Shown here: one piece after another, positions 18,050 through 55,349 of the stretch
How the letters are laid out: each line of letters starts with the position of its first letter
Numbering within the stretch: the first letter of the stretch is position 1
From: Pempheris klunzingeri
Lineage: Eukaryota > Chordata > Actinopteri > Acropomatiformes > Pempheridae
DNA length: 64,000 bases
Assembly (NCBI RefSeq): GCF_042242105.1
Contig: NC_092034.1
Location: 16,997,644-17,061,643 of the forward strand
Reading direction: 5' to 3'
Program-made: the position numbers and the translations under genes
Notes under the pieces: model-generated
The model's database searches: none
What the model was told of the DNA's origin: nothing
Seen by the model: the letters and a program-made list of their open reading frames with translations, nothing else

Positions 18050-18319
18050 CTCTGACTGCTTCCTGTCCCACTGACTGTCTGCTGTCCAGGTGACTGTCTG
18101 CTGTTCTAGTGACTGTCTGCTGTTGTAGTGACTGTCTGCTGTCCCACTGACTGTCTGCTGTCCAGGTGACTGTCTGCTGTTCTAGTGACTGTCTGCCGTC
18201 CAGGTGACTGTCTGCTGTCCAGGTGACTGTCTGCCGTCCAGGTGACTGTCTGCTGTTCTAGTGACTGTCTCCTGTTCTAGTGACTGTCTCCTGTTCTAGT
18301 GACTGTCTCCCGTTCAGGT
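18050..18319. repeat. 19-bp minisatellite, block 1
   Basis: Tandem units of the form GTGACTGTCTGCTGTCCAG or GTGACTGTCTGCTGTTCTA, about 14 copies. This block carries CTGTCTGCTG where later blocks carry CTGTCTCCTG. It lies between the divergent eml3 and ecsit promoters. Confidence 0.95.
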
Positions 18320-18489
18320 GTAAATATTTATTTCATTTCATCACAACCATATATTTATATTTATATTTATTTTTGCTATTTTGTCTTTTCTATTGCTCTG
18401 TTTTTTTCACTCTCCCTGTTTATATTGTTGCTGCTGTAACAAGAAAATTTCCCCCTATGGGGGATCAAATAAAGAAAGTCTCAAGTCTC
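18320..18489 (+). mobile_element. retrotransposon 3' tail inserted in the minisatellite
   Basis: A 170-bp A/T-rich segment interrupts the array and ends with TTTCCCCCTATGGGGGATCA and AATAAAGAAAGTCTCAAGTC. That is the style of fish non-LTR element 3' ends (stop-and-polyA-like, terminal short repeat). The array resumes in register on the far side, so I read it as an insertion. The family is not assigned. Confidence 0.55.
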
Positions 18490-19205: not shown

Positions 19206-19238
<33 letters not shown>

Positions 19239-20689
19239 CTGTCTCCTGTTCTAGTGACTGTCTCCCGTCCAGGTGACTGTCTCCTGTTCTAGTGACTGTC
19301 TCCTGTTCTAGTGACTGTCTCCCGTCCAGGTGACTGTCTCCTGTTCTAGTGACTGTCTCCTGTTCTAGTGACTGTCTCCTGTTCTAGTGACTGTCTCCTG
19401 TCCAGGTGACTGTCTCCTGTTCTAGTGACTGTCTCCTGTTCTAGTGACTGTCTCCTGTCCAGGTGACTGTCTCCCGTCCAGGTGACTGTCTCCCGTCCAG
19501 GTGACTGTCTCCTGTTCTAGTGACTGTCTCCTGTCCAGGTGACTGTCTCCTGTTCTAGTGACTGTCTCCTGTCCAGGTGACTGTCTCCTGTCCAGGTGAC
19601 TGTCTCCTGTCCAGGTGACTGTCTCCTGTTCTAGTGACTGTCTCCTGTCCAGGTGACTGTCTCCTGTTCTAGTGACTGTCTCCTGTTCTAGTGACTGTCT
19701 CCTGTTCTAGTGACCTGACTAGTGACCGTCCAGGTGACTGTCTCCTGTTCTAGTGACCTGACTAGTGACCGTCCAGGTGACTGTCTCCTGTTCTAGTGAC
19801 TGTCTCCCGTCCAGGTGACTGTCTCCTGTTCTAGTGACTGTCTCCCGTCCAGGTGACTGTCTCCCGTCCAGGTGACTGTCTCCTGTTCTAGTGACTGTCT
19901 CCCGTCCAGGTGACTGTCTCCCGTCCAGGTGACTGTCTCCTGTTCTAGTGACTGTCTCCTGTTCTAGTGACTGTCTTCTGTCCAGGTGACTGTCTCCCGT
20001 CCAGGTGACTATCTCCTGTTCTAGTGACTGTCTCCTGTCCAGGTGACTGTCTCCTGTTCTAGTGACTGTCTCCTGTCCAGGTGACTGTCTCCTGTTCTAG
20101 TGATTGTCTCCCGTCCAGGTGACTGTCTCCCGTCCAGGTGACTGTCTCCCGTTCTAGTGACTGTCTCCCGTCCAGGTGACTGTCTCCTGTCCAGGTGACT
20201 GTCTCCCGTTCTAGTGACTGTCTCCCGTCCAGGTGACTGTCTCCTGTTCTAGTGATTGTCTCCCGTCCAGGTGACTGTCTCCCGTCCAGGTGACTGTCTC
20301 CCGTCCAGGTGACTGTCTCCTGTTCTAGTGACTGTCTCCCGTTCTAGTGACTGTCTCCCGTCCAGGTGACTGTCTCCCGTCCAGGTGACTGTCTCCCGTT
20401 CTAGTGACTGTCTCCCGTCCAGGTGACTGTCTCCCGTTCTAGTGACTGTCTCCCGTCCAGGTGACTGTCTCCTGTTCTAGTGACTGTCTCCCGTCCAGGT
20501 GACTGTCTCCCGTCCAGGTGACTGTCTCCTGTTCTAGTGACTGTCTCCTGTCCAGGTGACTGTCTCCTGTTCTAGTGACTGTCTCCTGTTCTAGTGACTG
20601 TCTCCCGTCCAGGTGACTGTCTCCCGTTCTAGTGACTGTCTCCCGTTCTAGTGACTGTCTCCTGTCCCAGTGACTGTCTCTGTCTCCTG
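19206..20689. repeat. (GT)n then 19-bp minisatellite, block 3 (about 76 copies)
   Basis: A GT tract at 19206-19238 runs directly into about 1.45 kb of 19-bp units. Two main unit types alternate irregularly: CTGTTCTAG-ended and C(C/T)GTCCAG-ended. Two units near 19715 and 19755 carry the same internal change (GTGACCTGACTAGTGACC), showing local duplication of pairs. Because 19 is not a multiple of 3, translation gives a 19-residue periodic frame on the minus strand, which is an artefact. Confidence 0.96.
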
Positions 20690-21525: not shown

Positions 21526-24500
21526 ATGAAGTGTGCCCGCCCCCTGCTCCAGCTGCAGTGTGTCAGACTGCTGGGCCAGTCTGCCCGGTGTGGCCCCCTG
21601 CTCCAGTCAGCCCTCTGCAGTCAGCCCAGCTCGCTCCCTCTCATCCAGCTCCAGGTAAGCCTCAGTCTCCACACATAGCATCCACTCTCTGCTCCAGATG
21701 TGGGTCAGCCGTGACGCCAGAGGTGTTGGCAAAGGTACTATAGCATATAAGAATGATCTGGCCCTTTCCTGAACGACGAGCCCAGTCTTCACTTCAACCC
21801 ACACAGCAGCACATATTACAATGCTTTATTCTTCTCTCTCTCGGCCACAGAGCTCAACAGTAGTCACAAAGTGTTAAAACACGTCACTGCTGCACTGCCT
21901 GACATTCGTCCTTCATCACCATGAACACACACACTGACCTTTTCTTCTATATAATATTACACTTGTTTCAAATATTCCATTTATGTGGAGAGAAATGAGG
22001 AAAGTGCCAGAAGAGCCTGTTAATGAAATTTGGAAAGTATGGTTTTTTTAATAGTAAAGTTGCATAATGAATTTCAGGCCCCTTAAATATGAAAAGACGT
22101 GATGAGAGATGAGATTCCAAATAGAAGAAGGCTTGTTCAGATGTTATTTGTTCCAGTTTATTTTGAATGTACTGTTGAAGGTGGAGTCTATGAATTCAGA
22201 CCTACACATTTTCTCATACAGTGGTTTTGTCGTTCAGCATCCTGTCGACAGGTTCACCCATGAATCAACATGTAATGACTGAGTAGCGAAGGTTAGACGA
22301 GACAAAGCGTCAGCCTTAGTGAGCAGAGATCTGCTCCTCAGACACAAGTCTCTTTTGGACCGCTGGCCTTTGGGTTTCTCACAGAGAAGTCACAGTACAT
22401 CTATTCACTGGTGATGATTCACATTTAGTGAGATAAAAGGAGGACGGGGCAGTGCTGAGTCTCACTGATACTTGGCTGTAAGAATCAGCAGCCAGTCAGG
22501 ACTTTCTTTAAGTTTCTTGTAGAGTTTTGATTTAATTTAATTTCCTTTGCTGTTGACAACACAGCAATCCATGACTGTACATTGTCAGATTCTTAGGCCA
22601 TGGCTGATGGCTTTGTTTTAATGTGTGTTGAATAAATGGCTTATTTAGAACCACACATAGCATTCAGTCTTCAAATCTCTCTCGTGCCATGGACAGCACA
22701 TTTATATTTTCAACCTGCTTAAAACATTTGGTCAGTAACCCAAAATAGAAGCTTTTTCTCTACTATTATTATTATTATTGTCGTCACAGACTGATCATGA
22801 CCTAACATCTAGAGCGCCATTTAGGAATGTGCACAATTCTTTTGCAAGAGTCCTTGAAAACAAAAATGATTGCTTCAAAGGGACTTGAGACTCCTTTCCA
22901 GGGGAGAAAATTGGAAAAAGTTTGTGCATTTCACATAAAACCCCCCCCCCAGAAATACAGCAGCCCCCAAGGGTTAGGGTGCATCAGACATGTAGACATT
23001 TTTTCACAAAAGTCATGCTCTTAAAAATGTGTGTGTGTGTTGGTTGATATTAGTATGTTCTTGTAGTTTTTGTGTGTTTGCAGTAAGACACTCTGTTCTC
23101 CACACTGGCCACAGGTTGTTTCTGTAGAGCTGTATAATACAGAATGTACTGTCACATGTAGGTGTCGAGGCCTTTCCACGGCAGCCCGGCGTGTTCCAAG
23201 AGTCGACCTGTACCGACACAGTTCACCAATGAGGACCACAAGATCAGGGACGGGTCTCTAGTCACCCACGATGACCTGTTTGAGCAGGTGGCCAAAGAGA
23301 CCAAGACCAAGGCCACGTTTAACAAAGTGATGGACGTCTTCACCAAGAGAAACGTGAGACGGCGGGGTCACGTGGAGTTTATCTACGCCGCTCTGATGAA
23401 GATGCCCGAGTTCGGCGTGGAGAGAGACCTGGCCATTTACAACAAGCTGCTGGATGTCTTTCCCAAAGAGGTGTTCGTGCCCAGGAACTTTATCCAGCGA
23501 ATGTTCAACCACTACCCCCGACAGCAGGAGTGTGGAGTGCAGCTCCTGGAGCAGATGGAGAACTACGGTGGGTGTATGGTACAGCACCCAGGCTACTCAT
23601 CGAATGCCTGGGATGCTTTGTGACTTAGAGAAGGCTATTTCAGACAGTGAAAGGCAGGGCTGTGGCTGTATTCTCTCCAGAAGCAAGGGAAATGTGTACA
23701 TACTGGCTTTAACTCATATAATACATACTGCTGCCACTTTAAATCATTTTGTTTCAGGTATCATGCCTAACATGGAGACCAAAGTCCTGCTGGTCCAGAT
23801 CTTTGGAGAGAAGAGCCACCCCATGAGGAAGTACCAGCGCCTCATGTACTGGTTCCCCAAATTCAAACACACAAACCCCTTCCCGCTCCCCCAGCAGCTG
23901 CCTGATGACCCAGTGGACCTGGCTCGCCTCAGCCTGACTCGCATCGCTAACGACCTGGACGCTGACATCACCGTCCACCAGGTTTTTATCACTGACAGGC
24001 TCAGAGTGTTATTCTAAGTGTGTGACAGCATGATGGAAAGGATCCCTACAGAGAGAGACCTGGAAGATCCTTTTGGTTTAACCACAAACAGCACACACAC
24101 CAGACTACATTCACTAAAACAGGGATTTTAGCTCACTGAACACAGGAGCTACAGTCTGTGTTATTGTGTGTTACACACATATTGTGTTGGATCCAAACTA
24201 ATTCTTTAAAAATCAAACAGTAGCACAAATTACCTTAATGATTGAGGCAGCAGTAGACCAGAAACTCCCATGTTCTGGGAGGTAAAATGACGCTATTAGC
24301 CTAGCTTAGCATAGATAATCAGGTTGGCTGGTCCTGTCCAAAGTAGAAAAATACTCCTACCAACACCTCTAAAGCTCACTGATTCATATGCTGCAACTCA
24401 TTTGTTTAATGTGTACACAAACAGAAACGACACGAGGCACACAAGTGTTTCTGTACGGTACACAACATGCCCATCAGTGAGCTTCAGAGGGGTTCGATTG

Positions 24501-26672
24501 AACACGCAGACACGGGATTGATATCCATCTGAACATCTTAGTCTGAGAAATATAGTGTGACTTCTGTGTTCTGTGGCCATTCTGTGCTTCTGAGGCTTAA
24601 TATCCAATGTTAGCATTCAAAAAAACTACAGCTAATACAGACAACTTCATGGGAGCTGTAGTTTTTGCATTCTTTTTTATGTAATTGTCTTGTTTTCATG
24701 TCTATTTCTTTGCTTTTCCCCTTTAGCTGCCCTATACAGACATTACAGAGAGTGGAATACAGATCATACATCCACATATAGTAGGTAAGGAAACTGTTGC
24801 ATGAAGTTACAGGACTCCCGCTGCACGTTGGATAATGTCAAGACTGGTCAAGTCAGGGTATATAACATGTAATCTCTCGAGAATTTCGAGTTTGATAGCA
24901 AAAATTGTTATTTTGCTGTAACTTCACAGGAGTATATCAGATACTGTCGTCTTTGACACATAGTTGCAGTAGATGATTTTCAGCCTGACTGCAAAGGAAA
25001 TCAGAGAAGTCACAGTATTAAACAAGGAAACCACATTCTGTCCATCTCCAACATGTCACATCAGTGCATCATTGTCTGTGTCTCCCTTCTGTCCTGTGTT
25101 GACACCAGGTATCCAGAGCCCCAGCCAGATGGAGCTGCTGGCCAAGCATAACCCGAGCAGGCCGGTGTTTGTAGAGGGCCCCTTCCCTCTGTGGCTGAGG
25201 AAGAAGTGTGTGTACTACTACATCCTCAGAGCTGACCCCACACCAGCTGACGAGAGGGTGGGTAAATCCTCTGATACCTGATGCTGCTCATGTGGGGATT
25301 CTTGAATCCTTCATGTTGAATTCCTGAATCGTTGGGTCTCTCTCTAATTAAAGAGTTTGGTCTGGACCTGCTCTTTGGAGTCTGGAGATAACACTGTTAT
25401 GAGTTGACGCTATATGAATAAAGATTGATTGAAACATGAGAGAGGAGCAGGCTGAGAGAGGTCAGAGGGGCAGAGAAGATCCTGTCTTAGTTGTAGTAAA
25501 GGATTTGTAACTTTACTCCTGCCAAATGTTCATTTTCCTACTTTAAAAGCCAACCTTGCCTGCCAGCCTGTGTGTGTGTGTGTGTGTGTTTCCAACAGTC
25601 TTCCTCTAACAAACTGCTCAGTGATTCAAATGTCAGAATCACAGGTGCTGATCCAGGACGTCCAGATACAGGACGGTGTTCCTTACTCAAGGAAACCGTC
25701 TTCTTCTTAACAGACAGCAGCATGCATGAAAGCCCCTCAGCTGGACAGCAGCTCATCGTCTCAGTGCGTTGTTTGATCAGCGTGGATGAGCTGCAGCTGA
25801 CTAAATTTGCCGGAAGCTGCAGTTGTCTTGATAATCGGAGAAGTCAACAGAAATGATGGAAACAGCTGGCAGAGTCATCTAGGAATCGTTTAATTTCCTC
25901 CCAGAAGAGAAGCTCTGATCTTCCTAAAGCTCAAGGAAAAGCAAAGAGAGCATTTATGACAGCAGACTTGGAGTTAGATGACTTCATCAGGAACCTTCCT
26001 GAGTGAAGAGCTGGGTGCTGAGCATGAGCAGCGGTAGCCACCTTAAAGAGTCTTTAGTCTGGACGATGACCTTCCAATGTTAGCCAGTAAAGGTTTCCTC
26101 ATCTCACTCTGAAGCTCATACAGCTGTAACTGTGTGTCCCCTCCCCAGGTAGAGGAGCCCTATGATCCAGAGAGGTGTTTGGACTATCCCCTGCAGCTAG
26201 ACCTGGATCTGGACCGCGACTTGGGGGACGACGAGAGCTTCAGCGTGGAAGACTGTAAGTTATTAAGAGTGAAACAGTCAGACTGGTGACGGGGCTGAGT
26301 GGTCAGTTGTCATTGTGCAGAGGAGAATAAAAGCATAGGAGGCATCATACTGAGAATGTCATGCTCTTGTGTGTCTTGTATCCAGTGGATGAGGGTCCAG
26401 TCTTTGCCATGTGTATGACCAGCCAGGGAGACCAGGCCACCCTCAGCCAGTGGATCTCTGGTCTCCAGCTCAACAACCCCATCCTGGGCCAGGTCCCCAC
26501 TCTGTTCCGCCTGGAGGCCGGGCCCAAGGAGCTGCAAGGGGCAGCAAACACAGAGTCCGGCCACCACCGGAGACCAGAGCCAGAGACCCAGAGAGAGGAG
26601 AGACAGCCTGAGGAAGAGCCTGAGGTCACAGCGGAGGAAGAGCCGAGGAGAAGCCAGGGGATGAAGCTGTGA
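21526..26672 (+). CDS. ecsit: ECSIT, mitochondrial complex I assembly and Toll-pathway adaptor
   Basis: ECSIT works in the mitochondrial complex I assembly (MCIA) complex with NDUFAF1 and ACAD9, and as a TRAF6-linked adaptor in Toll/BMP signalling. Seven exons fit with GT-AG borders and consistent phases: 21526-21654, 23162-23567, 23758-23981, 24727-24784, 25109-25257, 26149-26254 and 26386-26672, giving 452 residues (human about 431). Residues 1-55 are rich in Arg, Leu and Ser with no acidic residue, fitting a mitochondrial presequence. Residues 60-255 carry the ECSIT core ([53 protein letters not shown]). Residues 255-400 carry the C-terminal domain ([30 protein letters not shown]). The tail is acidic and Glu-rich. 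The start ATG has a good context (CCACCATGA). Confidence 0.97.
23162..23567 (+). CDS. ecsit: ecsit exon 2 (core domain)
   Basis: 406 nt, acceptor CACATGTAG, donor GTGGGT. It starts VSRPFHGS (end of the presequence) and encodes most of the N-terminal ECSIT domain. The minus strand is also open over much of this exon, but only the plus frame shows family similarity. Confidence 0.96.
23758..23981 (+). CDS. ecsit: ecsit exon 3
   Basis: 224 nt, acceptor TTTCAG, donor GTTTTT (weak but canonical GT). It encodes [20 protein letters not shown] and [20 protein letters not shown], aligning closely with human ECSIT around QIFGRKSYPM and NPFPVPRDLPQDPVELA. Confidence 0.96.
24727..24784 (+). CDS. ecsit: ecsit exon 4 (58 nt)
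   Basis: Short exon [19 protein letters not shown], acceptor CCCCTTTAG, donor GTAAGG. It joins exon 5 as HIVGIQSPSQ, matching PHIVGIQSPDQ of human ECSIT. Confidence 0.93.
25109..25257 (+). CDS. ecsit: ecsit exon 5
   Basis: 149 nt, acceptor ACACCAG, donor GTGGGT after ADER. It encodes [20 protein letters not shown] and [20 protein letters not shown], the most conserved block of the C-terminal domain. An L2 tail follows 12 bp into the next intron. Confidence 0.96.
25270..25432 (+). mobile_element. L2/Maui-type LINE 3' tail
   Basis: 5'-truncated tail in ecsit intron 5: CTGATGCTGCTCATGTGGGG, then TTGAATTCCTGAATCGTTGG, then an AATAAAGATTGATTGA end. Non-coding. Confidence 0.8.
25570..25589. repeat. 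(GT)n microsatellite
   Basis: About ten GT units in ecsit intron 5. Confidence 0.95.
26149..26254 (+). CDS. ecsit: ecsit exon 6
   Basis: 106 nt, acceptor CTCCCCAG, donor GTAAGT. It encodes [20 protein letters not shown] and an acidic segment ending SVED, corresponding to the WNLYYPMQLDLEY region of human ECSIT. Confidence 0.95.
26386..26672 (+). CDS. ecsit: ecsit exon 7 with stop
   Basis: 287 nt from acceptor TATCCAG to TGA at 26670-26672. It encodes [43 protein letters not shown] and a poorly conserved acidic tail of about 45 residues ([12 protein letters not shown] type). Confidence 0.96.
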
Positions 26673-31933: not shown

Positions 31934-31950
31934 TCAGTTCCTGTGAGTCT
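31934..31950 (-). CDS. SPINDOC-like terminal coding exon
   Basis: Acceptor GTTTTGCAG at 31951; only ETHRN and TGA are coding. Placed by phase. If this intron were retained, translation would stop four codons later (TAA). Confidence 0.55.
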
Positions 31951-34900
31951 CTGCAAAACAAGTGAGACAGACCGAGTGAAGTGAAAACATGAGAACAGCA
32001 GTAAAATAATGGGTACCTCTCAGAGGTGCTGTAGTAGGACCTGGCCCTCTGTTGCTTCCCTTTCCCCTTACGCGCTTGGCCGAACACCACCCTGCCCTCT
32101 CTGCGGTTATGCTGTACCTGCCAGGGCCCCGCTGTGCTGCTGGAGCTGGCTGGTGAAGAAGCGCTCCCTCTGGGACACCTGCTCGTCCCACGCTTCCAGT
32201 ATTCGCTGTTGCTCCCCGGGCTCCAGGGTCAGGGTGTGCGGGTGGGTCTCGTCAATGTGGGCCCTCACTCCCTCCAGGCTGTGTGAGTACTGCTGCTCCC
32301 CACACACCATGCACACCAGCAGCTGGTTGAGTGGGTCGTAGTCCATGAGGTAGCGGTTCCGCCACACGGTGTCTGAGACAGGACCTTCCTCACCGTTGTT
32401 GTTTTCATAGTCAGCAAGCAGAAACTCGGACTCATCTGAGGAGATAGTTGAAAGAGAGTTTTGTGCCAGTTTTGCCATTTTAATGTGCATTCTGTCAGGG
32501 TCATAAAGTGACTCGCTGGATAGTTCACCTTCTACGGGTGCTGTGTAATTTGAGTACACAAAGGATTCTGGGTCGGTGTCCACTGAAGTACTGTGAAAGA
32601 GACACAACAGTTACATTCATTATTATCCTGCACTGAACTGCAAGCAGAACCGATGTTATGGGAGAAATACAAACTCCTCACCTCAGGAGATGTCCTGAGT
32701 CCTCAGAAGAGTTCCCCCACTGACTAGAGTCCTGCTGAGGGAAGTCAGAGAGAAGAAGTCAGCGTTTGATAAATCAAACTTGAACATGGTCGCGCTGTGC
32801 CGAGTGTCTCATAATTCCCTTCCAGTCTTCGTCTCTTTGCGCTCATTGGACTGGCTTTCAAACAAGCGATGATATCTGGGCTGAGCTGTGGCTCACAGGT
32901 AGAGAACCAATGGTTCAGTCCCCAGCTCTGCACGATCCAGACCCTAAGCCCCAAATGTTCCAGACTAGAAAGGTGTCTATTTAATCAAATCTTTGGGGTC
33001 AGGGGCTAACAACAAGTCAGTATCTTAATGCATTATGGGATCCAACATTTTTGGAACTTGACCCATACGAGAAACTCTGTCAGGATTTCTCTGCCTCTGT
33101 TGCTTTGATTTTGTGTTTTGTTTTTATTATTTTGATCCATTCTTCTTTTAATTTGTCTCTGAAAATAAAAAAGCTGAATCATTTTAGAACTTTATAGATG
33201 ATTGAAGATTATATTTGCATTTCCTTGAACTTCACACAGTCTGTTTCAGCCACATCCTCCGCCATCGCTTCCTAACACCCCCCTAAAATCAATACACTGA
33301 TTTTCTATTGAGGTGTGTCATCACCAGTGGACAAGTATCCTTTCCTGTATTCTGTTCCGCTTATCCTTAAGGGTTGTGGGGGGGCAGGGCCGACATATAG
33401 TGACAGACAACCACTCACACTCACAACCTACGAGCAATTTAGGGTCACCAATCAACCTGCACGTCTTTGGACTGTGGGAAGAAGCCGGAGAACCCAGAGA
33501 AAACCCACACAAGCACAGAGAGAACATGCAAAGTCCACACAGAAAGACCCCAGGCTCAAACTGCAAAGCAACCAGCTGGCAGATTGAAACAGGAACGTGT
33601 GTGTAGAAATGTTGTAAATGAAGCAAAGGTTCAGTCTTTACAAGTTTTTCTTTTACATCTCTTCTGTCTCTTTGTAACTCGGTATCAAGGCTTACTTGTG
33701 TGCTGTGAGGATAAATAGTGATGGTGGAATCAAAACTTCTATGATTTGTGAGCAGACTCCATCAACCATCCATCTTTGAATGTGACATTCTGACTAATCT
33801 GTTCTTCACCATCTAACAGGAACAGAATAATTAGAGCCATGAACCATGTCTTTATGTACCTGTGCTGCTCTGTCTTGTGTTCGTGGGTCCTGGGCAGGCA
33901 GGATGGGCCTCCAGCTGTTGGAGGCTCTCCTTGGGGTGACACCCTTATCCCGAATGGCCTTCCTGGCTCTCTGCTCCTTCTTTTTTATCCTCCAGTACTC
34001 CCGCTTCCTCCTCAGAAATTCCTCCTCAGACTCCCCTGGGATGAGCTTGGGTGGAACCATGGTACTTATAGGTGCCAGCTTGGGGGGGACTTGTATCATA
34101 TGCGTTGGGCTCTGAGATCGGGCACATGGGATTTTTATTGGACTGAGGGTAGAATTTGGAGTTTGAATGGGCGGTTCAATAGGCTGCAGGTTGATGTTGG
34201 ACAGAGGGTTGTCTGGGGGCTTCAGAGTAGGGAGGGAGGGCGCCGGGTCTACATCTGTGCTTCTAGACATCCACTTTTGTGAAGCTGGCATGGCTTGTTG
34301 CTGGTGTTCTGGAGCTCCCACATGGTCGCATATGGTCTGTGAAGGCCCAACATTCAAGTTCACTTGCTCACTTGTGGGTGAACAGGAGACACTGCTGACA
34401 GGCAGTTTGACCTGAAGTGTGTCGGGTGACTGTTCGGCATTACATGTTGTGGGGGTAACAACCAGGACCGTGGGGATACTTTTCCCTGCAGACACAGAGG
34501 CAATGGATGGCTTGGGCTGGAGCGCTGGTTTTGCTGGAGGATTTCCACCCTTAACAGTGTTGATAATGACAAGGGCAGGAGCCTGGAAGACAAAAACACA
34601 ATATGAACAAATGATTTCTCTCAGTTTTCCCACAGGTAAACACCATTAAAACAGCAACCAGGCAATTATCTTTCTGAAACATGCACGTGTGTGTTGCATC
34701 TGTGTAAGTAGGTCCCTCTCAGTCACACTCCACTCTATTTTTGCTGCTCAAGTGTCAAATGCCAGACAGGTTTGCAGCTGAATGATTCAGGTTTCAGCTG
34801 CAGAGAGCACTGGCCATGCCTACATGCCTTCAAGCTTTGTGCTGACAAACACACTGACGCTCACCGCGAGGTCTCATGGCAGAGGCACCAGCGTCTGCAG

Positions 34901-37900
34901 CATCACTTGAAGCACACATCATTCAGATGATGTATAGGGACAAAGGACCGCTTGTAACTAAAACTTTTCATTCCACAAATGTCTGTTATTCAAGGGCTTT
35001 TCTCACAGCTAACAAATGTTCCTGGGGTTTTCAGGGTTAGGGTCCATTTTAACAACGAGTGGTTACCACTGTTGGCATGAAACAACAAATGATCCTGAGT
35101 CTCAGCTACTGGCCTACTGTGAGCCTCTCATGGGAGCTCCTCACTGCCGCTGCTGTCAAATGGGGGAACAGACACACATGCCTGGTGTTCAGATGCTTTC
35201 AAAGTTGAGACACTGTTTGCTAAATGACAAGATAAATAGACATTTCTTTTAAGGACCCTTCTCATAAACACAACCACCCCTTAATGATGATTACCCTTAT
35301 CATCATTAAAAGGATCCATCCATTGTCTATACCTGGAGCCAACCCCAGCTGGCACTGGGCAAGAGGCAGGGACTGGTCACCAGTCAATCACAGGTCGACA
35401 CATAGAGACAGACAACCACTCACACCTGCTGGGAGTTTAGAGTCACCGATGAACCTGGAACCTTCTTTCTGTGGGGCATCAGCACTAACCACTGCAAACC
35501 TCAGGATCATGTCTTAGGCTGTTGCTCTTTCTAAACTCTGTCCTGCTCCCTCACACTGCCTCCGTGTACGACCCAATCAGTCAATGCTGCATGCAGCACA
35601 TTCAGTATTACCTACTTATTACAACACTGGCTGTGTGCTATACTGCCACACAGATGTTGCAGATGCTACAGTATGTACCATCAGTGCACATCACCTGGAT
35701 GTTTTTCTGGGAAAGCCGACTGTTGCACTCTCCGTGTCTGTCTTTCTGCCGGGCCTTTAACCTGGCCCTTTGCTGCCTCTTCATCAGCTTCCAGTACTCC
35801 CTCTTCCTCTGGAGGCTGGTCATACCGCTGTGCTCACCCGCCACACTGCGGTATCTTTGTGCTGATGGCGAGCTGCTGTTCCAGCATTGTTCTTGTGCCT
35901 GACACTGTTGTTCACATTGCTGCTGTGGGTGGAGTTTGTCCACAGTGGGCGGCTGGGTGGCGGGCAGGTGGTGGAGCTTTGGCGGCTCTGGGGAACAGCC
36001 GTTCTCATGACTTTCTGTTTTGGTGCAAAGCCTTTGGGTTCTGTGAGGTGAGGGCGGGCTGCCAGAGACTGCCATGAAGGGGTTAACTATGAAGTTGGAA
36101 GAGGTTTGGGATGAGTGGTCACAGGTGGGATGCAGGACTACCTCACTGGAGGTAGAAAGAGGTGGAGGTGTGTCACCACTTTGTGACGAGTCCTTGAGAT
36201 GAGGGCTTGGTGAACTGGATTGTACCAAGGCATCAGTCTCTGACTGCCAGCTCTTTATCTCCAGGGTCAGGTCAGCAGCGATAGGAGCCACCTCATCTTT
36301 CTCAAAAAAGAGCTGAGGTAAATTTGGCTTCATCTCCTGCTCTGAAGCCTCTTCCATAGACTCTATTTTAATCTCAGTCTGCTCATTGTTACACTCCATC
36401 ACTGTGCTCAGGGATTCTTCCAGAAGTTTCTTCATGGAGGCCACGGCTAGCAGAGTAGTAGCTTGGCTGTCTGCATTCAGAGCTGGGTCACACTCTGGCT
36501 GAGGCGCTGGAGGTGGTGTTGGGGAGGTTGGGGGTTTGATTTCTGGACAGATGGCTTGTTCCGGTTGTGAATTGAGTTGAACTGCTGGCATAGACTCAGT
36601 CTCTTGTTTTATCTCATTTGCATGTGGTGTGACAGGCACGCTGTTTTTGGGGAGAGGTTGTGCATCTCCTGTACGGTTGGCCAGCCTTCCTGACTGCGGT
36701 CCAGGGGTTACTGCTACTGGCCTCTGGGCCTTCCTCCTCTGTAAGGCCGCATTAGCCCTCGTCTGTAAGACGCCTTGCCTCAATCGCGCAGCACAAGCTG
36801 CTCGCTGCTCTCGTTTCTTTATTCTCCAGTACTCCCTCTTCTTTGCCATCCTTTCCTCCTCTGTCAGGCCTGGATCCAGAGAGAGTGCCGATAGTGATGG
36901 GGCACTGCTTGAGACGGCCATTTTCATGACGCAGCCACCGAGGGTCGAGTCTGCTGCCGATCCTCCAGAACCGGCGCTGCGAGGGCTCTGAGGATGAGTG
37001 AGTGTCAGCTGGCACGTTTGAACTGCTAATGAGTGGGAATTAGGACCAGCTGTGCTTTCAAGTTGAGTCCTTGGTCTGATTGGCAGCAGCCTCGGTTTGT
37101 TGACCAACTGACCAGCAAGTGGAAAAGAGACTCTGACCTGAGGTCGGCGGGGTGGGGGTGCGGGCTGGTTTACCCGAATGGGAGCGGTACCTCTCCCTTT
37201 AGAGTCATGCTGATGTTTAGTGATGGGGGTATTATCACGGACTACATCAAGCTCCGCTTCATTTCTGTGTACTGCTGAGCTGTGGTCTGTGGGGGTCTGG
37301 GGAATGTTAACGCTCACTGTCCCGTCCTCTTTGATGAACCCCCCAATGGTCTCAGAGGTGTCGGTAAGGCTGCTTCCTGCTGACTGCGTCAGCACTCTGG
37401 CCCTCCTCATCTCCTCTAGGATCTTCTGGTAACGTTTCACTCTTCGCATTAGAGAGTCCCTCTCCTTCAAGCGAGACTTCACCTCCATTGACAGCTTAGC
37501 TCGCTGTTCGCGCTTTTTAATCCGCCAGTACTCTCGCCGTTTGGCTATTATCTGCTCAGGTGTGTCGTTGGGGTCAATTTTGGGGATATTTCTGGTACCA
37601 AAGACTGAGGCAAGAGATGGGGATTTACATCTGATGTTTCTTTGAGTCATGAAATTCTTCTGGGCTTCGATGAACCTCTGTCTCGGTGTTTTACATCGTG
37701 CAATGCCTCGGGTAACATTGGAAAAATGTCCATAACTTGGAAGCCTTCTGTGTGACTCCCCTGGCTTTTTCACTGAAATCTCACCGGATGGGATGGCTGT
37801 CAGCATTGTCCTTTTCTCACGTGGATTTTGTACTTTTATCTGATCTGTTTGCAGGTTGACTGGAGCTAAACTTCCTGCCACACCATGCAGTTTATCATTT

Positions 37901-38997
37901 ACCCTTTTGGCAGATGGAAATGAAGTTTTGACTCGAGTTGTACACTGCCCCTGGCCTACTCCTCTCAAAGCTGACTGAGATGAAAGATTCTGAAGAATCG
38001 TGGCACCCAAAAATCCAGTCTTTTGTGCCGTTTGCCTCTGTACCGTCATCTCTCTGGCTTTAGCTATCTGAGCTGCCACCTTTGCTCTCTGCTCTCTCTT
38101 TTTGATTCGCCAGTGCTCTCTGCGCCTGGCTGCTCTCTCCTCCTCTGACTCCAGGGAAGGTTGTGAGTTTCCATCACCTTCAGGCCCCTGCGAGGTGACC
38201 AAGGCACACTTTGTTCCACTTTGAGGTGTTGTGTTTGCTGCTTTGCCCTCCGTTTTAATAGAAACAGTGGCACGAGGAGGAGACACGAGAATCGTACCTG
38301 TGGTCACATTGGTCGGTAATGGTTTGGGCTGAATGCGTAATGAAATGTGTCCCTTCTGTTGCGTTTTGGGGACTGATGCGCCCTGCATAGACACACGTGG
38401 CTGAGGTGCTGTTTTAGCGGAGCTGCCATTGGTAATTCTGGTCGCTGTGACTGGAGGCACTGAGGAACTGGTGTTCAGCTGGAATCCACCTGCTGTGGGT
38501 GAGGTAACGGCTCTGCTCACAGCACCCGATGCTGTTCTGCTTCTCTCTGCGGCTGTGTTGCCCTCAGCAGCTTCGGCTGACATGGAACATGATCCTGGCG
38601 ACTGAGGCAAGACCTTGTTGAGCTTCATTGTCTGGAGCCACTTCTCCTTTTGGCTTTCAGTTGCTTCAGCTGAGCTGTCCCCCACTGAGTTTCCACTCTG
38701 CGAAGGAGAGACATTGGCTGTTTTGAGTGACTCATCTTTACTCTGTAATGGAGGAGAAAAAGCAGCAAAGGAGGGGGATAAACTGGGATTCACCACTGCA
38801 GGGGCATTTAAATGTAGCAGCTTTTTCCCTCGACTGTCTTGCACTGGCCTGCCTCTGCGCTCCGACAGTCTGGCCCTCTGCTCTCGTTTCTTGGTTCTCC
38901 AGTATTCTCTCTTTTGGGCGAGGGTGGCGTCATCATATTCTGAGGCAGGCCTGTAGCGGTGGGATGCTGAGTCACCTTTACCTTTTGCAGTTGGCAT
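31934..38997 (-). CDS. SPINDOC-like protein: SPIN-DOC zinc finger plus six KREYWRxKKREQRA modules
   Basis: Five coding exons with GT-AG borders and matching phases: 38997-35695, 34582-33860, 32734-32682, 32590-32118 and 31950-31934, about 1522 residues. Residues about 1445-1500 form a SPIN-DOC-type zinc finger (LMDYDPLNQLLVCMVCGEQQ, then RAHIDETHPHTL, ILEAWDEQ) with spacing C-x2-C-x14-H-x4-H, as in SPINDOC and ZFTA. Six copies of a basic module lie near residues 29, 294, 490, 722, 1069 and 1298. Between them are Pro-, Ser- and Gln-rich low-complexity linkers and three SUMO-consensus sites (IKTE, IKQE, IKIE). An in-frame TGA 27 nt upstream supports the chosen ATG. Human SPINDOC, which docks on the histone reader SPIN1, is much shorter as I recall it, and I do not recall these modules in it. 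Placement beside zfta suggests orthology, but the name stays provisional. No biochemical function is shown by sequence. Confidence 0.85.
32118..32590 (-). CDS. SPINDOC-like exon 4 (SPIN-DOC zinc finger)
   Basis: 473 nt, acceptor TTTCACAG, donor GTACAG. An acidic segment (SSDESEFLLADYENNNGEEG) is followed by WRNRYLMDYDPLNQLLVCMV and the CxxC...HxxxxH finger, then LEPGEQQRILEAWDEQVSQR. The HPHTLTLEPGEQQRILEAW stretch closely parallels HPHTLDLSPSEKSNILEAW of human SPINDOC, which is the main basis for the SPINDOC assignment. Confidence 0.92.
32682..32734 (-). CDS. SPINDOC-like exon 3 (53 nt)
   Basis: Short acidic exon QDSSQWGNSSEDSGHLL, phase 0 in and 2 out, donor GTGAGG. The acceptor is a tandem CAGCAG, so Gln may be included or skipped (32734 or 32731). 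Confidence 0.7.
32880..32950 (+). mobile_element. degenerate tRNA-SINE head
   Basis: GCTGTGGCTCACAGGTAGAG and GGTTCAGTCCCCAGCTCTGC resemble the tRNA-like head of the SINE at 27045. Body and tail are not recognisable. It lies in a SPINDOC-like intron. Confidence 0.5.
33340..33600 (+). repeat. dispersed fish repeat (CCGCTTATCC...GGAAGAAGCCGGAG type)
   Basis: Contains CCGCTTATCCTTAAGGGT, GACAGACAACCACTCACACT, GTCTTTGGACTGTGGGAAGA and GAGAACATGCAAAGTCCACA, a widespread interspersed repeat in percomorph fishes. Partial copies lie at 35312-35480 and 62530-62725. Class not assigned. Confidence 0.75.
33860..34582 (-). CDS. SPINDOC-like exon 2 (sixth basic module)
   Basis: 723 nt, phase 0 in and out, acceptor GTCTTCCAG, donor GTACAT. 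A Pro/Ser/Val-rich linker is followed by GESEEEFLRRKREYWRIKKK and EQRARKAIRDKG, the sixth module copy at about 33964-34009. Its acidic lead plus basic helix matches the copies in the large exon, supporting one gene. Confidence 0.88.
34583..35694 (-). other. SPINDOC-like intron 1
   Basis: 1.1-kb intron. Apart from the dispersed repeat at 35312, no coding or RNA feature was seen. Confidence 0.6.
35312..35480 (+). repeat. partial copy of the same dispersed fish repeat
   Basis: Shares ATCCATCCATTGTCTATACC, AGGCAGGGACTGGTCACCAG, AGACAGACAACCACTCACAC and GAGTCACCGATGAACCTGGA with the family; its 3' half is truncated. It lies in the intron between SPINDOC-like exons 1 and 2. Confidence 0.7.
35695..38997 (-). 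CDS. SPINDOC-like large exon (1101 codons, five basic modules)
   Basis: Single uninterrupted 3303-nt coding segment with donor CAG-GTGATG at 35694. Module copies lie at about 38869-38913 (KREYWRTKKREQRAR), 38080-38126 (RREHWRIKKREQRAK), 37495-37542 (RREYWRIKKREQRAK), 36799-36843 (KREYWRIKKREQRAA) and 35762-35808 (KREYWKLMKRQQRAR). Copies 2-4 are preceded by a short acidic stretch (SEEERAA, DTPEQIIA, TEEERMA). Copy 3 is followed by a likely coiled coil (VKSRLKERDSLMRRVKRYQK). A Gln-rich patch (HPQQQCEQQCQAQEQ) precedes copy 5. Confidence 0.9.
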
Positions 38998-39206: not shown

Positions 39207-40253
39207 CTACGGAAAAGGAGACAATTCTTACTTAGTAATAAACCTGGTATGATGGGCTGCCAGTAGGCAACAATTTATTAAGCAGCTCCTGACTAAATAT
39301 TTTAATAGAATGTATATTTTAAAAGGACTTCCCAGGTCAAAGATATTATACACTCAGTGGCCGCTTTCTTAAGCAAACCGTACCAACAATTCTGTCCCTA
39401 CAAAGATTATGATGCTCAGGTTTTTGTTAACATTGTAGGTATGAATTCAGCCTCACACTCAGTGGTCATAACACAATCCATCAAACAGCCGTGATGTTGT
39501 GTTTCTGTTGGTTCTGTGTTCATCTAACTATATGAAGTTCACCATTGTGCTAACAGTGAATAGTGCACTGGACTGCCTTACACAGAGGGGGGGCTCTAAT
39601 GTTTTGGACACCCAAATGTAGGGCTGCGACTGACAGTACAGTTATCATTTAATCTCCCCATGATATTCTCCAGGTTGTGCTTGATCTATAAAACGTCAGC
39701 TATTCTTAAAAGTCTGTAAAATGGTGAAAATGCCCACAGGCTTTTAGCAGAGTACATGCTGACACGTAGAAAAGCACACATTAGTAACAAACAGTAACAA
39801 ACATGATGATGACGCTGGATGTCTGAACATTACAGTGACCATTAGAAGCTCTGTGACAGCGGACACTTTCTGCTCCACTTTACCTTCAGGGGCTGTAGTG
39901 TGTAAAATAATCAGCCTGTTAACACTGTTTCATTACAGCAAAACACATGATTTACCTGGTGACACACCACATATTTCAAATGTACGGTAGCCTGGCAAGT
40001 AAAACATCAATCCAACATGTAATACTACATGTGTACATCTCAGATGTGAGGCACATGTGGACAGCTGGTTCATATGTGCTTCAACTGACATTAAAATAGT
40101 GTAGAATCATGATTTTCAGATCAGTCACATTTCTAGAGTGAGACATGAAAACAGTGATCACACTTCACATTTGACACACAGGCCGGAGCGGGATCAGTGT
40201 GACGGCAGTTTCACAGGTGCTTCCCCCGGTCAATCAGAGGTGTGAGCTCTGGC

Positions 40254-40780
40254 TGAATAAAAGCTGTGACTGAGGCTAAATAAAGGCTCTGACTGAGACT
40301 GAATAAAGGCTGTGGACTGAGGCTGAATAAAGGCTGTGGACTGAGTCTGAATAAAAGCTGTGGACTGAGGCTGAATAAAGGCTCTGACTGAGGCTGAATG
40401 AGACTGAATAAAGGCTGTGGACTGAGGCTGAATAAAGGCTGTGGACTGAGGCTGAATAAAGGCTGTGACAGGCTGAATAAAGGCTCTAACTGAGGCTGAA
40501 TAAAAACTGTGACTGAGGCTGAATTAAAGCTGTGACTGAGGCTGAACACAGGCTCTGACTGAGGCTGAATACAGGCTCTGACTGAGGCTGAGTAAAGGCT
40601 CTGACTGAGGCTGAATACAGGCTCTGACTGAGGCTGAGTAAAGGCTCTGGACTGAGGTTGAATACAGGCTCTGACTGAGGCTGAGTAAAGGCTCTGACTG
40701 AGGCTGAATACAGGCTCTGACTGAGGCTGAGTAAAGGCTCTGACTGAGGCTGAATACAGGCTCTGACTGAGGCTGAATAA
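40254..40780. repeat. 23-bp minisatellite
   Basis: About 22 tandem units such as GAGGCTGAATACAGGCTCTG plus ACT and GAGGCTGAGTAAAGGCTCTG plus ACT; the left half is more degenerate (AATAAAGGCTGTGGACTGAG). The minus strand gives an open frame with SLSQSLYSASVRA-like periodicity, judged artefactual. Confidence 0.95.
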
Positions 40781-40832
40781 CGGCCAGGGAGAGGACAGGG
40801 GCTGTCCGTCCTCTCCCTGGCCGTTATTCAGC
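40772..40832. repeat. perfect inverted repeat, 25-bp arms, 11-nt loop
   Basis: Arms 40772-40796 and 40808-40832 are exact reverse complements (left arm begins GCTGAATAACGGCCAGGG) around an 11-nt loop, AGGGGCTGTCC. The left arm overlaps the last 23-bp repeat unit; the right arm runs into the CpG-rich segment. Confidence 0.95.
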
Positions 40833-42171: not shown

Positions 42172-43650
42172 AGTGAGGTCTACTGGGAGCAGAGAGGTCT
42201 ACTGGGAGCAGTGAGGTCTACTGGGAGCAGAGAGGTCTACTGGGAGCAGTGAGGTCTACTGGGAGCAGTGTGGTCTACTGGGAGCAGTGAGGTCTACTGG
42301 GAGCAGTGAGGTCTACTGGGAGCAGAGAGGTCTACTGGGAGCAGTGAGGTCTACTGGGAGCAGTGAGGTCTACTGGGAGCAGAGAGGTCTACTGGGAGCA
42401 GTGAGGTCTACTGGGAGCAGAGAGGTCTACTGGGAGCAGTGAGGTCTACTGGGAGCAGAGAGGTCTACTGGGAGCAGTGAGGTCTACTGGGAGCAGTGAG
42501 GTCTACTGGGAGCAGAGAGGTCTACTGGGAGCAGTGAGGTCTACTGGGAGCAGTGTGGTCTGCACTGGGAGCAGTGTGGTCTACTGGGAGCAGTGTGGTC
42601 TACTGGGAGCAGTGAGGTCTACTGGGAGCAGAGAGGTCTACTGGGAGCAGTGAGGTCTACTGGGAGCAGAGAGGTCTACTGGGAGCAGTGAGGTCTACTG
42701 GGAGCAGTGTGGTCTACTGGGAGCAGTGAGGTCTACTGGGAGCAGTGAGGTCTACTGGGAGCAGAGAGGTCTACTGGGAGCAGTGAGGTCTACTGGGAGC
42801 AGTGAGGTCTACTGGGAGCAGAGAGGTCTACTGGGAGCAGTGAGGTCTACTGGGAGCAGAGAGGTCTACTGGGAGCAGTGAGGTCTACTGGGAGCAGAGA
42901 GGTCTACTGGGAGCAGTGAGGTCTACTGGGAGCAGTGAGGTCTACTGGGAGCAGTGAGGTCTACTGGGAGCAGAGAGGTCTACTGGGAGCAGTGTGGTCT
43001 GCACTGGGAGCAGTGTGGTCTACTGGGAGCAGTGAGGTCTACTGGGAGCAGTGAGGTCTACTGGGAGCAGTGAGGTCTACTGGGTGCAGTGAGGTCTACT
43101 GGAGCAGTGTGGTCTACTGGGAGCAGTGAGGTCTACTGGGAGCAGAGAGGTCTACTGGGAGCAGAGAGGTCTACTGGGAGCAGAGAGGTTTACTGGGAGC
43201 AGTGAGGTCTACTGGGAGCAGTGTGGTCTACTGGGAGCAGTGTGGTCTACTGTGAGCAGTGTAGTCTACTGGGAGCAGTGTGGTCTACTGGAGCAGTGTG
43301 GTCTACTGGGACCAGTGTGGTCTACTGGGAGCAGTGTGGTCTACTGGGTGCAGTGAGGTCTACTGGGAGCAGTGAGATCTACTGGGAGCAGTGTGGTCTA
43401 CTGGGAGCAGTGAGGTCTACTGGGTGCAGTGAGGTCTACTGGAGCAGTGAGGTCTACTGGGAGCAGTGAGGTCTACTGGGAGCAGTGAGGTCTACTGGAG
43501 CAGTGATGTCTACTGGGAGCAGAGAGGTCTACTGGAGCAGTGATGTCTACTGGGTGCAGTGAGGTCTACTGGGTGCAGTGTGGTCTACTGGGAGCAGTGA
43601 GGTCTACTGGGAGCAGTGTGGTCTACTGGGAGCAGTGAGGTCTACTGGGA
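42172..43650. repeat. 19-bp minisatellite, about 78 copies
   Basis: Unit GGTCTACTGGGAGCAGTGA with AGAGA/GTGAG/GTGTG variants; a few 18-bp (one G lost) and 21-bp (TGCACTGGG) units towards the right half. Higher-order alternation of GAGAG and GTGAG units is visible. Open frames across it (Val-Tyr-Trp-Glu-Gln patterns) are artefacts. Confidence 0.97.
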
Positions 43651-44005
43651 GCAGTGCTGCTTGTAGAGTCTGACAGCTGCTGGAAGGAAGGACCTGCGAT
43701 ATCACTCCTTCACACACTGAGGGTGGAGGAGTCTGTCGCTGAAGGAGCTCTCCAGTGCTCTCAGTGTGTCCTTCATGGGGGGAGTGTCGTTCCGTCTCAT
43801 TGATGATAGCTTTGCCATCATCAGGGGCTGGTCCTGAGGGAGGGGGCACCAACTCCAACATTTTTGCAGTGAAATATTCCTAAAATACAGCTAGAGACAA
43901 CAGGGAGTGTGCATGAGAGCAGGCACAGTTAACATGGCTGAAACATGACTGAAGTCATCACAGCCAAAGTTTTCAGTGCTCCGTCTTCTCACCTCATGTT
44001 TCACA
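43651..44005. other. unique spacer between two satellites
   Basis: About 350 bp separating the 19-bp and 7-bp arrays. A minus frame at 43604-43861 has no family resemblance, although the text CTTCACACACTGAGGGTGGA recalls transposon-derived sequence. No gene supported. Confidence 0.45.
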
Positions 44006-44071
44006 TCTCATCTCATCTCATCTCATCTCATCTCATCTCATCTCCTGTCTTCTGTCTCATATCTCATGTCA

Positions 44072-44114
<43 letters not shown>

Positions 44115-44185
44115 ATACCTCATGTCACCTGTCTCCTGTCTCCTGTCTCATACCTCATGTCTCCTGTCTCATGTCTCATGTCTCA

Positions 44186-44219
<34 letters not shown>

Positions 44220-44606
44220 ATGTCTCAGGTCACCTGTCTCCTGTCACCTGTCTCATGTCTCATATCCCCTGTCTCCTGTCTCAGGCCTCCTGTCTCTGAC
44301 CTCCTGTCACCTGTCTCCTGTCTCCTGTCACCTGTCTCATGTCTCATATCCCCTGTCTCATGTCTCAGGCCTCCTGTCTCCTGTCTCCTGTCTCATGTCT
44401 CAGGTCTCCTGTCTCTGGTCTCATGTCTCGGGCCTCCTGTCTCCTGTCTCATGTCTCAGGTCTCCTGTCTCTGGTCTCATGTCTCAGGCCTCCTGTCTCC
44501 TGTCTCCTGTCTCATGTCTCAGGTCTCCTGTCTCTGGTCTCATGTCTCAGGCCTCCTGTCTCCTGTCTCCTGTCTCAGGTCTCCTGTCTCTGGTCTCATG
44601 TCTCAG

Positions 44607-44660
<54 letters not shown>

Positions 44661-44931
44661 ATGTCTCAGGTCTCCTGTCTCTGGTCTCATGTCTCATGTC
44701 TCAGACCTCCTGTCTCTGGTCTCTTGTCTCCTGTCTCCTGTCTCTGGTCTCATGTCTCCTGTCTCATGTCTCAAGTCTCCTGTCTCTGGTCTCATGTCTC
44801 ATGTCTCAGGCCTCCTGTCTCCTGTCTCCTGTCTCATGTCTCAGGTCTCCTGTCTCTGGTCTCATGTCTCCTGTCTCATGTCTCAGGTCTCCTGTCTCTG
44901 GTCTCTTGTCTCCTGTTTCCTGTTTCCTGTT

Positions 44932-44968
<37 letters not shown>

Positions 44969-45170
44969 ATGTCTCAGGTCTCCTGTCTCTGGTCTCCTGT
45001 CTCCTGTCTCCTGTCTCATGTCTCAGGTCTCCTGTCTCTGGTCTCTTGTCTCCTGTTTCCTGTTTCCTGTCTCCTGTCTCAGGCCTCCTGTCTCCTGTCT
45101 CAGGCCTCCTGTCTCATGTCTCAGGCCTCCTGTCTCCTGTCTCCTGTCTCACGTCTCCCGTCTCCTGTCT
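44006..45170. repeat. 7-bp satellite (CTCCTGT family) preceded by (CTCAT)n
   Basis: (CTCAT)n at about 44008-44042 grades into roughly 1.1 kb of heptamers CTCCTGT, CTCATGT, CTCAGGT, CTCTGGT and CTCAGGC, organised in recurring strings of 28-84 bp. The family lacks stop codons, so three long overlapping plus-strand frames (419, 342 and 279 codons) appear open together. Confidence 0.96.

Positions 45171-45909: not shown

Positions 45910-55349
<9,440 letters not shown>

What the first reader, a model, noticed from the sequence alone, without database searches (positions are those of the whole stretch)
31934..38997. SPINDOC-like gene with six dispersed copies of a KREYWRIKKREQRAR module
Seen directly: six near-identical basic modules, five in one 1101-codon exon and one in the next exon, separated by about 170-350 residues of diverged Pro/Ser/Gln-rich linker. 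The module is invariant at R-E-[YH]-W and at Q-R-A and is preceded by an acidic patch in most copies, while the linkers look fast-evolving. That pattern fits a short selected binding unit (DNA, RNA, nucleosome acidic patch or a partner protein), probably an amphipathic helix. From family knowledge, SPIN-DOC zinc fingers occur in SPINDOC (which docks on SPIN1) and ZFTA. I do not recall this repeated module in human SPINDOC. A multivalent adaptor is inference.
Basis: partly seen in the sequence, partly recalled or inferred. Interest (0 to 1): 0.8.

Follow-up and report, generated by a model that had tools for sequence, protein, structure and literature searches.

The report
Six-helix array in fish SPINDOC gene
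A fish relative of the chromatin protein SPINDOC carries six scattered, almost unchanging copies of a short predicted helix that matched no known family in the libraries searched, which suggests an unstudied way of gripping the same partner at several points at once.

Summary
On the minus strand, five GT-AG coding exons (38997-31934) encode an uninterrupted 1522-residue protein with six copies of a 34-residue module and a SPIN-DOC zinc finger near the C-terminus. It is the ortholog of the unnamed fish gene si:dkey-28a3.2. The modules are ancient and individually kept: core identity to the window is 0.95 against 0.60 elsewhere, 480 of 480 modules match the same position in other proteins best, and synonymous sites are saturated. 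AlphaFold2 makes each module one helix in disorder. No module reached a Pfam cut-off or matched the PDB by profile; one module query found only this locus in the 646-Mb genome. Position beside ZFTA and a finger tree (UFBoot 97; human sequence recalled) support SPINDOC orthology, but the SPIN1-docking peptide is not detectable. Most likely the modules fold on a shared chromatin partner, giving avidity; the partner is unknown.

The parts
35695..38997 (-). coding exon 1, 1101 codons, modules M1-M5
   Evidence: homologs (120 of 291 listed)
33860..34582 (-). coding exon 2, module M6
32682..32734 (-). coding exon 3
   Evidence: splice phase joins exon 4 in frame
32118..32590 (-). coding exon 4 with SPIN-DOC zinc finger
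   Evidence: PF18658 E 2e-26
31934..31950 (-). last coding exon, ends ETHRN stop
   Evidence: several orthologs end EAHRN, EAHGN or similar
38848..38949 (-). module M1 (aa 17-50)
38059..38160 (-). module M2 (aa 280-313)
37474..37575 (-). module M3 (aa 475-508)
37381..37473 (-). helix continuing M3 (aa 509-539), coiled-coil-like, conserved
   Evidence: AF2 helix 480-539; identity 0.92-0.94
36775..36876 (-). module M4 (aa 708-741)
36409..36474 (-). second conserved helix, SQATTLLAVASMKKLLEESL region (aa 842-863), unlike the modules
   Evidence: identity up to 0.99; AF2 helix; no Pfam or PDB match
35740..35841 (-). module M5 (aa 1053-1086)
33941..34042 (-). module M6 (aa 1282-1315)
   Evidence: AF2 helix in the ortholog P0127
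32182..32367 (-). SPIN-DOC zinc finger
   Evidence: 93.6 bits
36601..36612 (-). psi-K-x-E site IKQE (aa 796), possible SUMO site
   Evidence: kept in 80 of 83 aligned sequences
36361..36372 (-). psi-K-x-E site IKIE (aa 876), possible SUMO site
   Evidence: kept in 71 of 83
47168..55250 (+). neighbouring ZFTA-type gene, divergent; four SPIN-DOC fingers at 47168-47356, 50215-50406, 51134-51322, 55065-55250
   Evidence: three of its exons match named ZFTA proteins best

Best explanation
The gene is the ray-finned-fish counterpart of SPINDOC: a SPIN-DOC zinc finger at the end of a long disordered chain that carries six dispersed helical docking motifs. Shown by computation: gene structure, six conserved modules, saturated synonymous sites; predicted: helices in disorder. 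Inferred: each module folds into a helix of about 27 residues on the same acidic surface, most likely on a chromatin protein or nucleosome, so that six weak contacts plus the finger give high avidity, with the long linkers setting spacing. M3, continued by a coiled-coil-like helix, may also dimerise the protein.
For: Core identity 0.95 (six 16-residue cores) against 0.60 for 1243 other residues in 83 aligned sequences, window included; outside modules and finger only two stretches reach module level. Of all 87 sequences over 1280 residues in hand, window included, 85 have six modules and 2 have five. Nearest neighbour at the same position for 480 of 480. Synonymous codons differ in 89 of 165 same-residue pairs, 88.5 expected at random. 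M6 helix at block-mean pLDDT 88-94 over residues 81-110 of P0127; M1-M5 cores all lie inside predicted helices, block means 57-87, while 834 of 1101 residues are under 50. Finger tree: 11 fingers of this gene family plus human SPINDOC against 23 ZFTA fingers, UFBoot 97 (human sequence recalled). Position: divergent beside ZFTA; a pig gene list runs MARK2, SPINDOC, ZFTA ... EML3 (PMC12071171, one passage seen), and an EML-type exon is in the window. Conserved E1, E9 (or Q) and A12 inside a basic helix argue for a shaped protein groove rather than plain charge; this step is inference.
Against: No partner was identified and no complex was modelled. Direct DNA or RNA binding by a basic helix is not excluded. 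The SPIN1-docking peptide is not found, so the best-known SPINDOC partner is not implied. AF2 confidence for M1-M5 is moderate. The full-length homologs come from the best 120 of 291, mostly spiny-rayed fishes by name, so six copies may not be general: eel P0209 has 4, Albula P0149 3, paddlefish P0169 2, and other shorter models 1 to 5, though these may be incomplete.
Confidence: 0.45

Rival explanations
1. The modules are dispersed DNA-binding helices that work like the STPR units of FMBP-1: flexible when free, helical when lying on DNA.
For: Similar size (23-residue STPR units) and a similar start, E-[ST]-x-E-[EQ]-R-A-A-R in M2 (sequences); FMBP-1 STPR is flexible when free and helix-rich on DNA, with an E4-R9 salt bridge (PMC4821344, passages seen). 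66 module pieces reported on a four-repeat STPR profile score above shuffles: median 1.9 against -2.0 bits, best 7.7 against 4.0 for the 99th percentile, though one shuffle reached 10.3.
Against: PF21107 is not reported for any module scanned and has no match in the genome; hhalign probability 2.5%. STPR units are tandem, these are not; invariant W3 has no counterpart in the four FMBP-1 repeats. The idea came after seeing the data.
Confidence: 0.2
2. The modules are RNA-binding arginine-rich helices that tether the protein to nascent or nucleolar RNA.
For: Basic predicted helix with an invariant Trp in a disordered chain; the analogy to arginine-rich RNA-binding peptides is recalled, not tested.
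Against: Acidic E1 (458 of 480) and E9 (399 of 480, else Q) are mostly kept and A12 in 479 of 480, unusual for pure phosphate contact (inference).
Confidence: 0.12
3. The gene is an old paralog beside ZFTA, not the SPINDOC ortholog, and its function is unrelated to SPINDOC.
Against: UFBoot 97 grouping; same place beside ZFTA as mammalian SPINDOC; no third strong SPIN-DOC gene in this genome, as the five best finger hits (84-102 bits) are this gene and ZFTA and the next is 53.6 bits.
Confidence: 0.18
4. The modules are recent internal duplicates or a repeat artefact with no selected role.
For: High amino-acid similarity between copies.
Against: Synonymous saturation, position-specific identity in 480 of 480, slow cores in fast linkers.
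Confidence: 0.02

Closest known systems
SPINDOC (C11orf84)
   Same: SPIN-DOC finger grouping at UFBoot 97; place beside ZFTA; a stretch aligning with the reported PARP1-binding segment 115-165 (PMC8568969, section 7 and passages seen), mapped on the recalled human sequence
   Different: 1522 residues against 381 (recalled); six modules, none visible in the recalled human sequence; finger near the C-terminal end; no detectable SPIN1-docking peptide
si:dkey-28a3.2 orthologs in teleosts
   Same: same gene, up to 77% identity over exon 1
   Different: no difference seen in plan; these are automatic models, and no paper in the open library holds the string dkey-28a3.2 in its main text
ZFTA (C11orf95)
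   Same: same finger family, adjacent divergent gene
   Different: three to five fingers in six members as extracted by pattern; no module in 22 ZFTA-type proteins
STPR repeats (FMBP-1, PDB 5d23; Pfam PF21107)
   Same: short basic units with similar helix starts, helical on DNA
   Different: tandem, no invariant Trp, no significant profile match
NF-YA helix A1
   Same: post hoc resemblance over 20 columns, hhalign probability 53.5% in one comparison with a recalled segment
   Different: needs a gap inside the helix; the NF-YA Pfam family is not reported for the modules

Membership tests
SPIN-DOC zinc-finger proteins (PF18658) | finger above curated cut-off 27.3 bits | tested here: met
   91.9 bits, E 2e-26
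SPINDOC | finger groups with SPINDOC rather than ZFTA | tested here: met
   UFBoot 97, 12 against 23 fingers; human sequence recalled, only 23 residues checked against PDB chains
SPINDOC | position next to ZFTA | tested here: met
   window order and pig gene list; mammalian orientation is recalled
SPINDOC | SPIN1 Tudor-3 docking peptide (human 256-281) | tested here: not met
   best phmmer E 13 over 211 fetched proteins plus the window protein; a diverged dock could be missed
SPINDOC | binds SPIN1 and PARP1 | not testable with these tools
   needs pull-downs
STPR domain (PF21107) | profile match and tandem 23-residue units | tested here: not met
   copies start 195-345 residues apart
si:dkey-28a3.2 orthologs | six modules plus finger | tested here: met
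   of 87 sequences over 1280 residues, 85 have six and 2 five; 83 of the 87 also have the finger

The most novel reading that the evidence does not exclude
The module is an undescribed helical docking motif that arose or expanded in ray-finned fishes inside SPINDOC. It turns a small SPIN1 adaptor into a six-valent chromatin tether, with the SPIN1 dock lost or never gained, so fish and mammalian SPINDOC reach chromatin by different means.
Probability: 0.35. Interest if true: 0.7.

Novelty: new variant of a known kind. Interest (0 to 1): 0.55.

Why it matters
A motif kept almost residue for residue six times over, in a gene that automatic pipelines leave unnamed, points to a strong unseen interaction. 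Finding its partner would give a ready-made multivalent chromatin (or DNA) ligand, and would show how a SPINDOC-type protein can work without a recognisable SPIN1 dock. Six natural copies with fixed differences also form a built-in mutant series.

Tried and rejected

Absence of the module in tetrapods and sharks was not properly tested. Searches listed 52 and 55 proteins within limited length ranges (one search had only 200 candidates). Among those with a source name, none with a module is from outside ray-finned fishes, but many are unnamed and no tetrapod SPINDOC was returned. No paper was found for dkey-28a3.2 or the string REYWRIKK in the open library; subscription papers are not held. Searches gave nothing on the module.
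Full report
What is there. The minus strand between 38997 and 31934 holds five coding exons joined by GT-AG introns of 1112, 1125, 91 and 167 bases. The product has 1522 residues and no internal stop. Exon 1 is exactly 1101 codons and holds modules M1-M5; exon 2 holds M6; exon 4 encodes a SPIN-DOC finger at E 2e-26. A module profile finds five modules in exon 1 (241 bits summed) and one in exon 2 (60 bits), against 11 bits for the best other stretch of the window in six frames. In the whole 645.9-Mb genome a 61-residue query built on M3 finds six places, all of them these modules. A second, composite query did not complete, so the uniqueness claim rests on one query.

Which gene. The best database matches are automatic models, many named si:dkey-28a3.2, from many fishes and up to 77% identical over exon 1 (291 hits, of which 120 were listed and used). 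Contigs P0014, P0021 and P0105, of unnamed source, hold six modules and the finger with 281-494 spare bases, most simply spliced transcripts. The large exon and the finger exon therefore very probably belong to one message in relatives.

How the modules evolve. In 83 aligned sequences (window included; chosen for length over 1280, five or more modules and a finger) the six 16-residue cores are 0.95 identical to the window, the finger region 0.89 and the rest 0.60. Of 1121 16-residue windows outside modules and finger, 22 reach the level of the weakest module, and they fall in two places: the helix after M3, and a second conserved helix at residues 839-868. Without the filter on module number, all 87 sequences over 1280 residues have modules: six in 85, five in 2. 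In 80 usable sequences of 81 aligned ones with six (one dropped because the pattern was not found), all 480 modules have their nearest neighbour at the same position in another protein, with no sign of homogenisation. Within the window gene, 89 of 165 same-residue codon pairs differ, as expected for random codon choice (88.5). The copies are therefore old and each held by selection on the protein.

Where copies are fewer. The eel P0209 has four (M1, M3, M5 and M6 by flanks), Albula P0149 three (M1, M5, M6), the paddlefish model P0169 two, and one electric-eel and one catfish model one each. A tree of 50-residue pieces puts M5 near M6 and M1 near M3, but I read no support values. These models may be incomplete, so stepwise growth in copy number is only a suggestion.

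Form. AlphaFold2 with 33 sequences puts each of the five exon-1 modules in a helix (residues 23-46, 285-324, 480-539, 713-757, 1061-1088) within a chain where 834 of 1101 residues have pLDDT under 50. In the ortholog P0127, M6 is a helix at 88-114 with block means of 88-94 up to residue 110, and the finger with a long C-terminal helix is well predicted. Invariant positions are R0, W3, K7, Q10, R11 and nearly A12. Their clustering on one helix side is suggestive only (0.071).

Relation to SPINDOC. In the window a ZFTA-type gene with four SPIN-DOC fingers lies divergent on the plus strand, and three of its exons match named ZFTA proteins best. A pig gene list runs MARK2, SPINDOC, ZFTA and, further on, EML3 (PMC12071171, one passage seen); the window also has an EML-type exon. 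In a tree of 35 fingers, 11 fingers of this gene family group with human SPINDOC against 23 ZFTA fingers with UFBoot 97. The genome shows no third strong SPIN-DOC gene. Yet the SPIN1-docking peptide is not found in this protein or in the 211 fetched proteins. The segment of SPINDOC reported to bind PARP1, residues 115-165 (PMC8568969, section 7 and passages seen), begins on the recalled sequence inside the finger and runs past it; the fish protein keeps the finger and the helix after it. Whether it binds PARP1 is untested.

Mechanism. The most likely reading is a multivalent tether: six like helices that fold on one kind of surface, spaced by disorder, plus a finger. Retained acids (E1, E9 or Q) and the small A12 inside a basic helix favour a shaped protein surface, and the SPINDOC kinship favours an acidic chromatin surface; this is inference. 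The closest working analogy is the STPR DNA-binding unit of FMBP-1, flexible alone and helical on DNA (PMC4821344, passages seen). Membership in STPR was tested and not met. Two conserved psi-K-x-E sites (80 and 71 of 83) suggest SUMO regulation, but the total of three sites is not unusual (1.16 expected, 0.11 of shuffles reach it).

Verdict. A real, strongly conserved and, in the open library searched, undescribed helical module array in a known but unnamed gene; the partner is the open question.

Noticed in passing
window 36409-36474 (-): A second conserved helix, SQATTLLAVASMKKLLEESL, as invariant as the modules (0.99), present in all 83 aligned sequences, in eel P0209 and in electric eel P0210, but not detected in Albula P0149, paddlefish P0169 or catfish P0167; no Pfam or PDB match.
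   Followed up: partly
L012, L017 and over a hundred further places in G000: Beyond this gene and ZFTA, over a hundred dispersed weaker PF18658 matches pass the Pfam cut-off (150 of 367 candidates scored). Two examined lie in ORFs that look, from recall, like hAT/GTF2IRD2-type N-termini, so the finger may descend from a transposase.
   Followed up: partly
window 23162-26669 (+): ECSIT gene exons (ECSIT_N and ECSIT_C) on the other strand, downstream of this gene.
   Followed up: no
window 3711-3989 (-): EML-type N-terminal exon (E 3.7e-8 to an EML4 chain).
   Followed up: no
window 18063-18320, 19235-20680, 40251-40784, 42172-43656, 44041-45170: Tandem arrays of 19/38/76-, 19/38-, 23-, 19- and 7-base units; the last three lie between this gene and the fingers of the ZFTA-type gene.
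   Followed up: no
P0114, P0206, P0035, P0074: Misleading database names within this gene family: prolyl 3-hydroxylase 1, terminal uridylyltransferase 4, mucin-5AC, and a ferret label on a tilapia protein; probably fused or mislabelled models.
   Followed up: no
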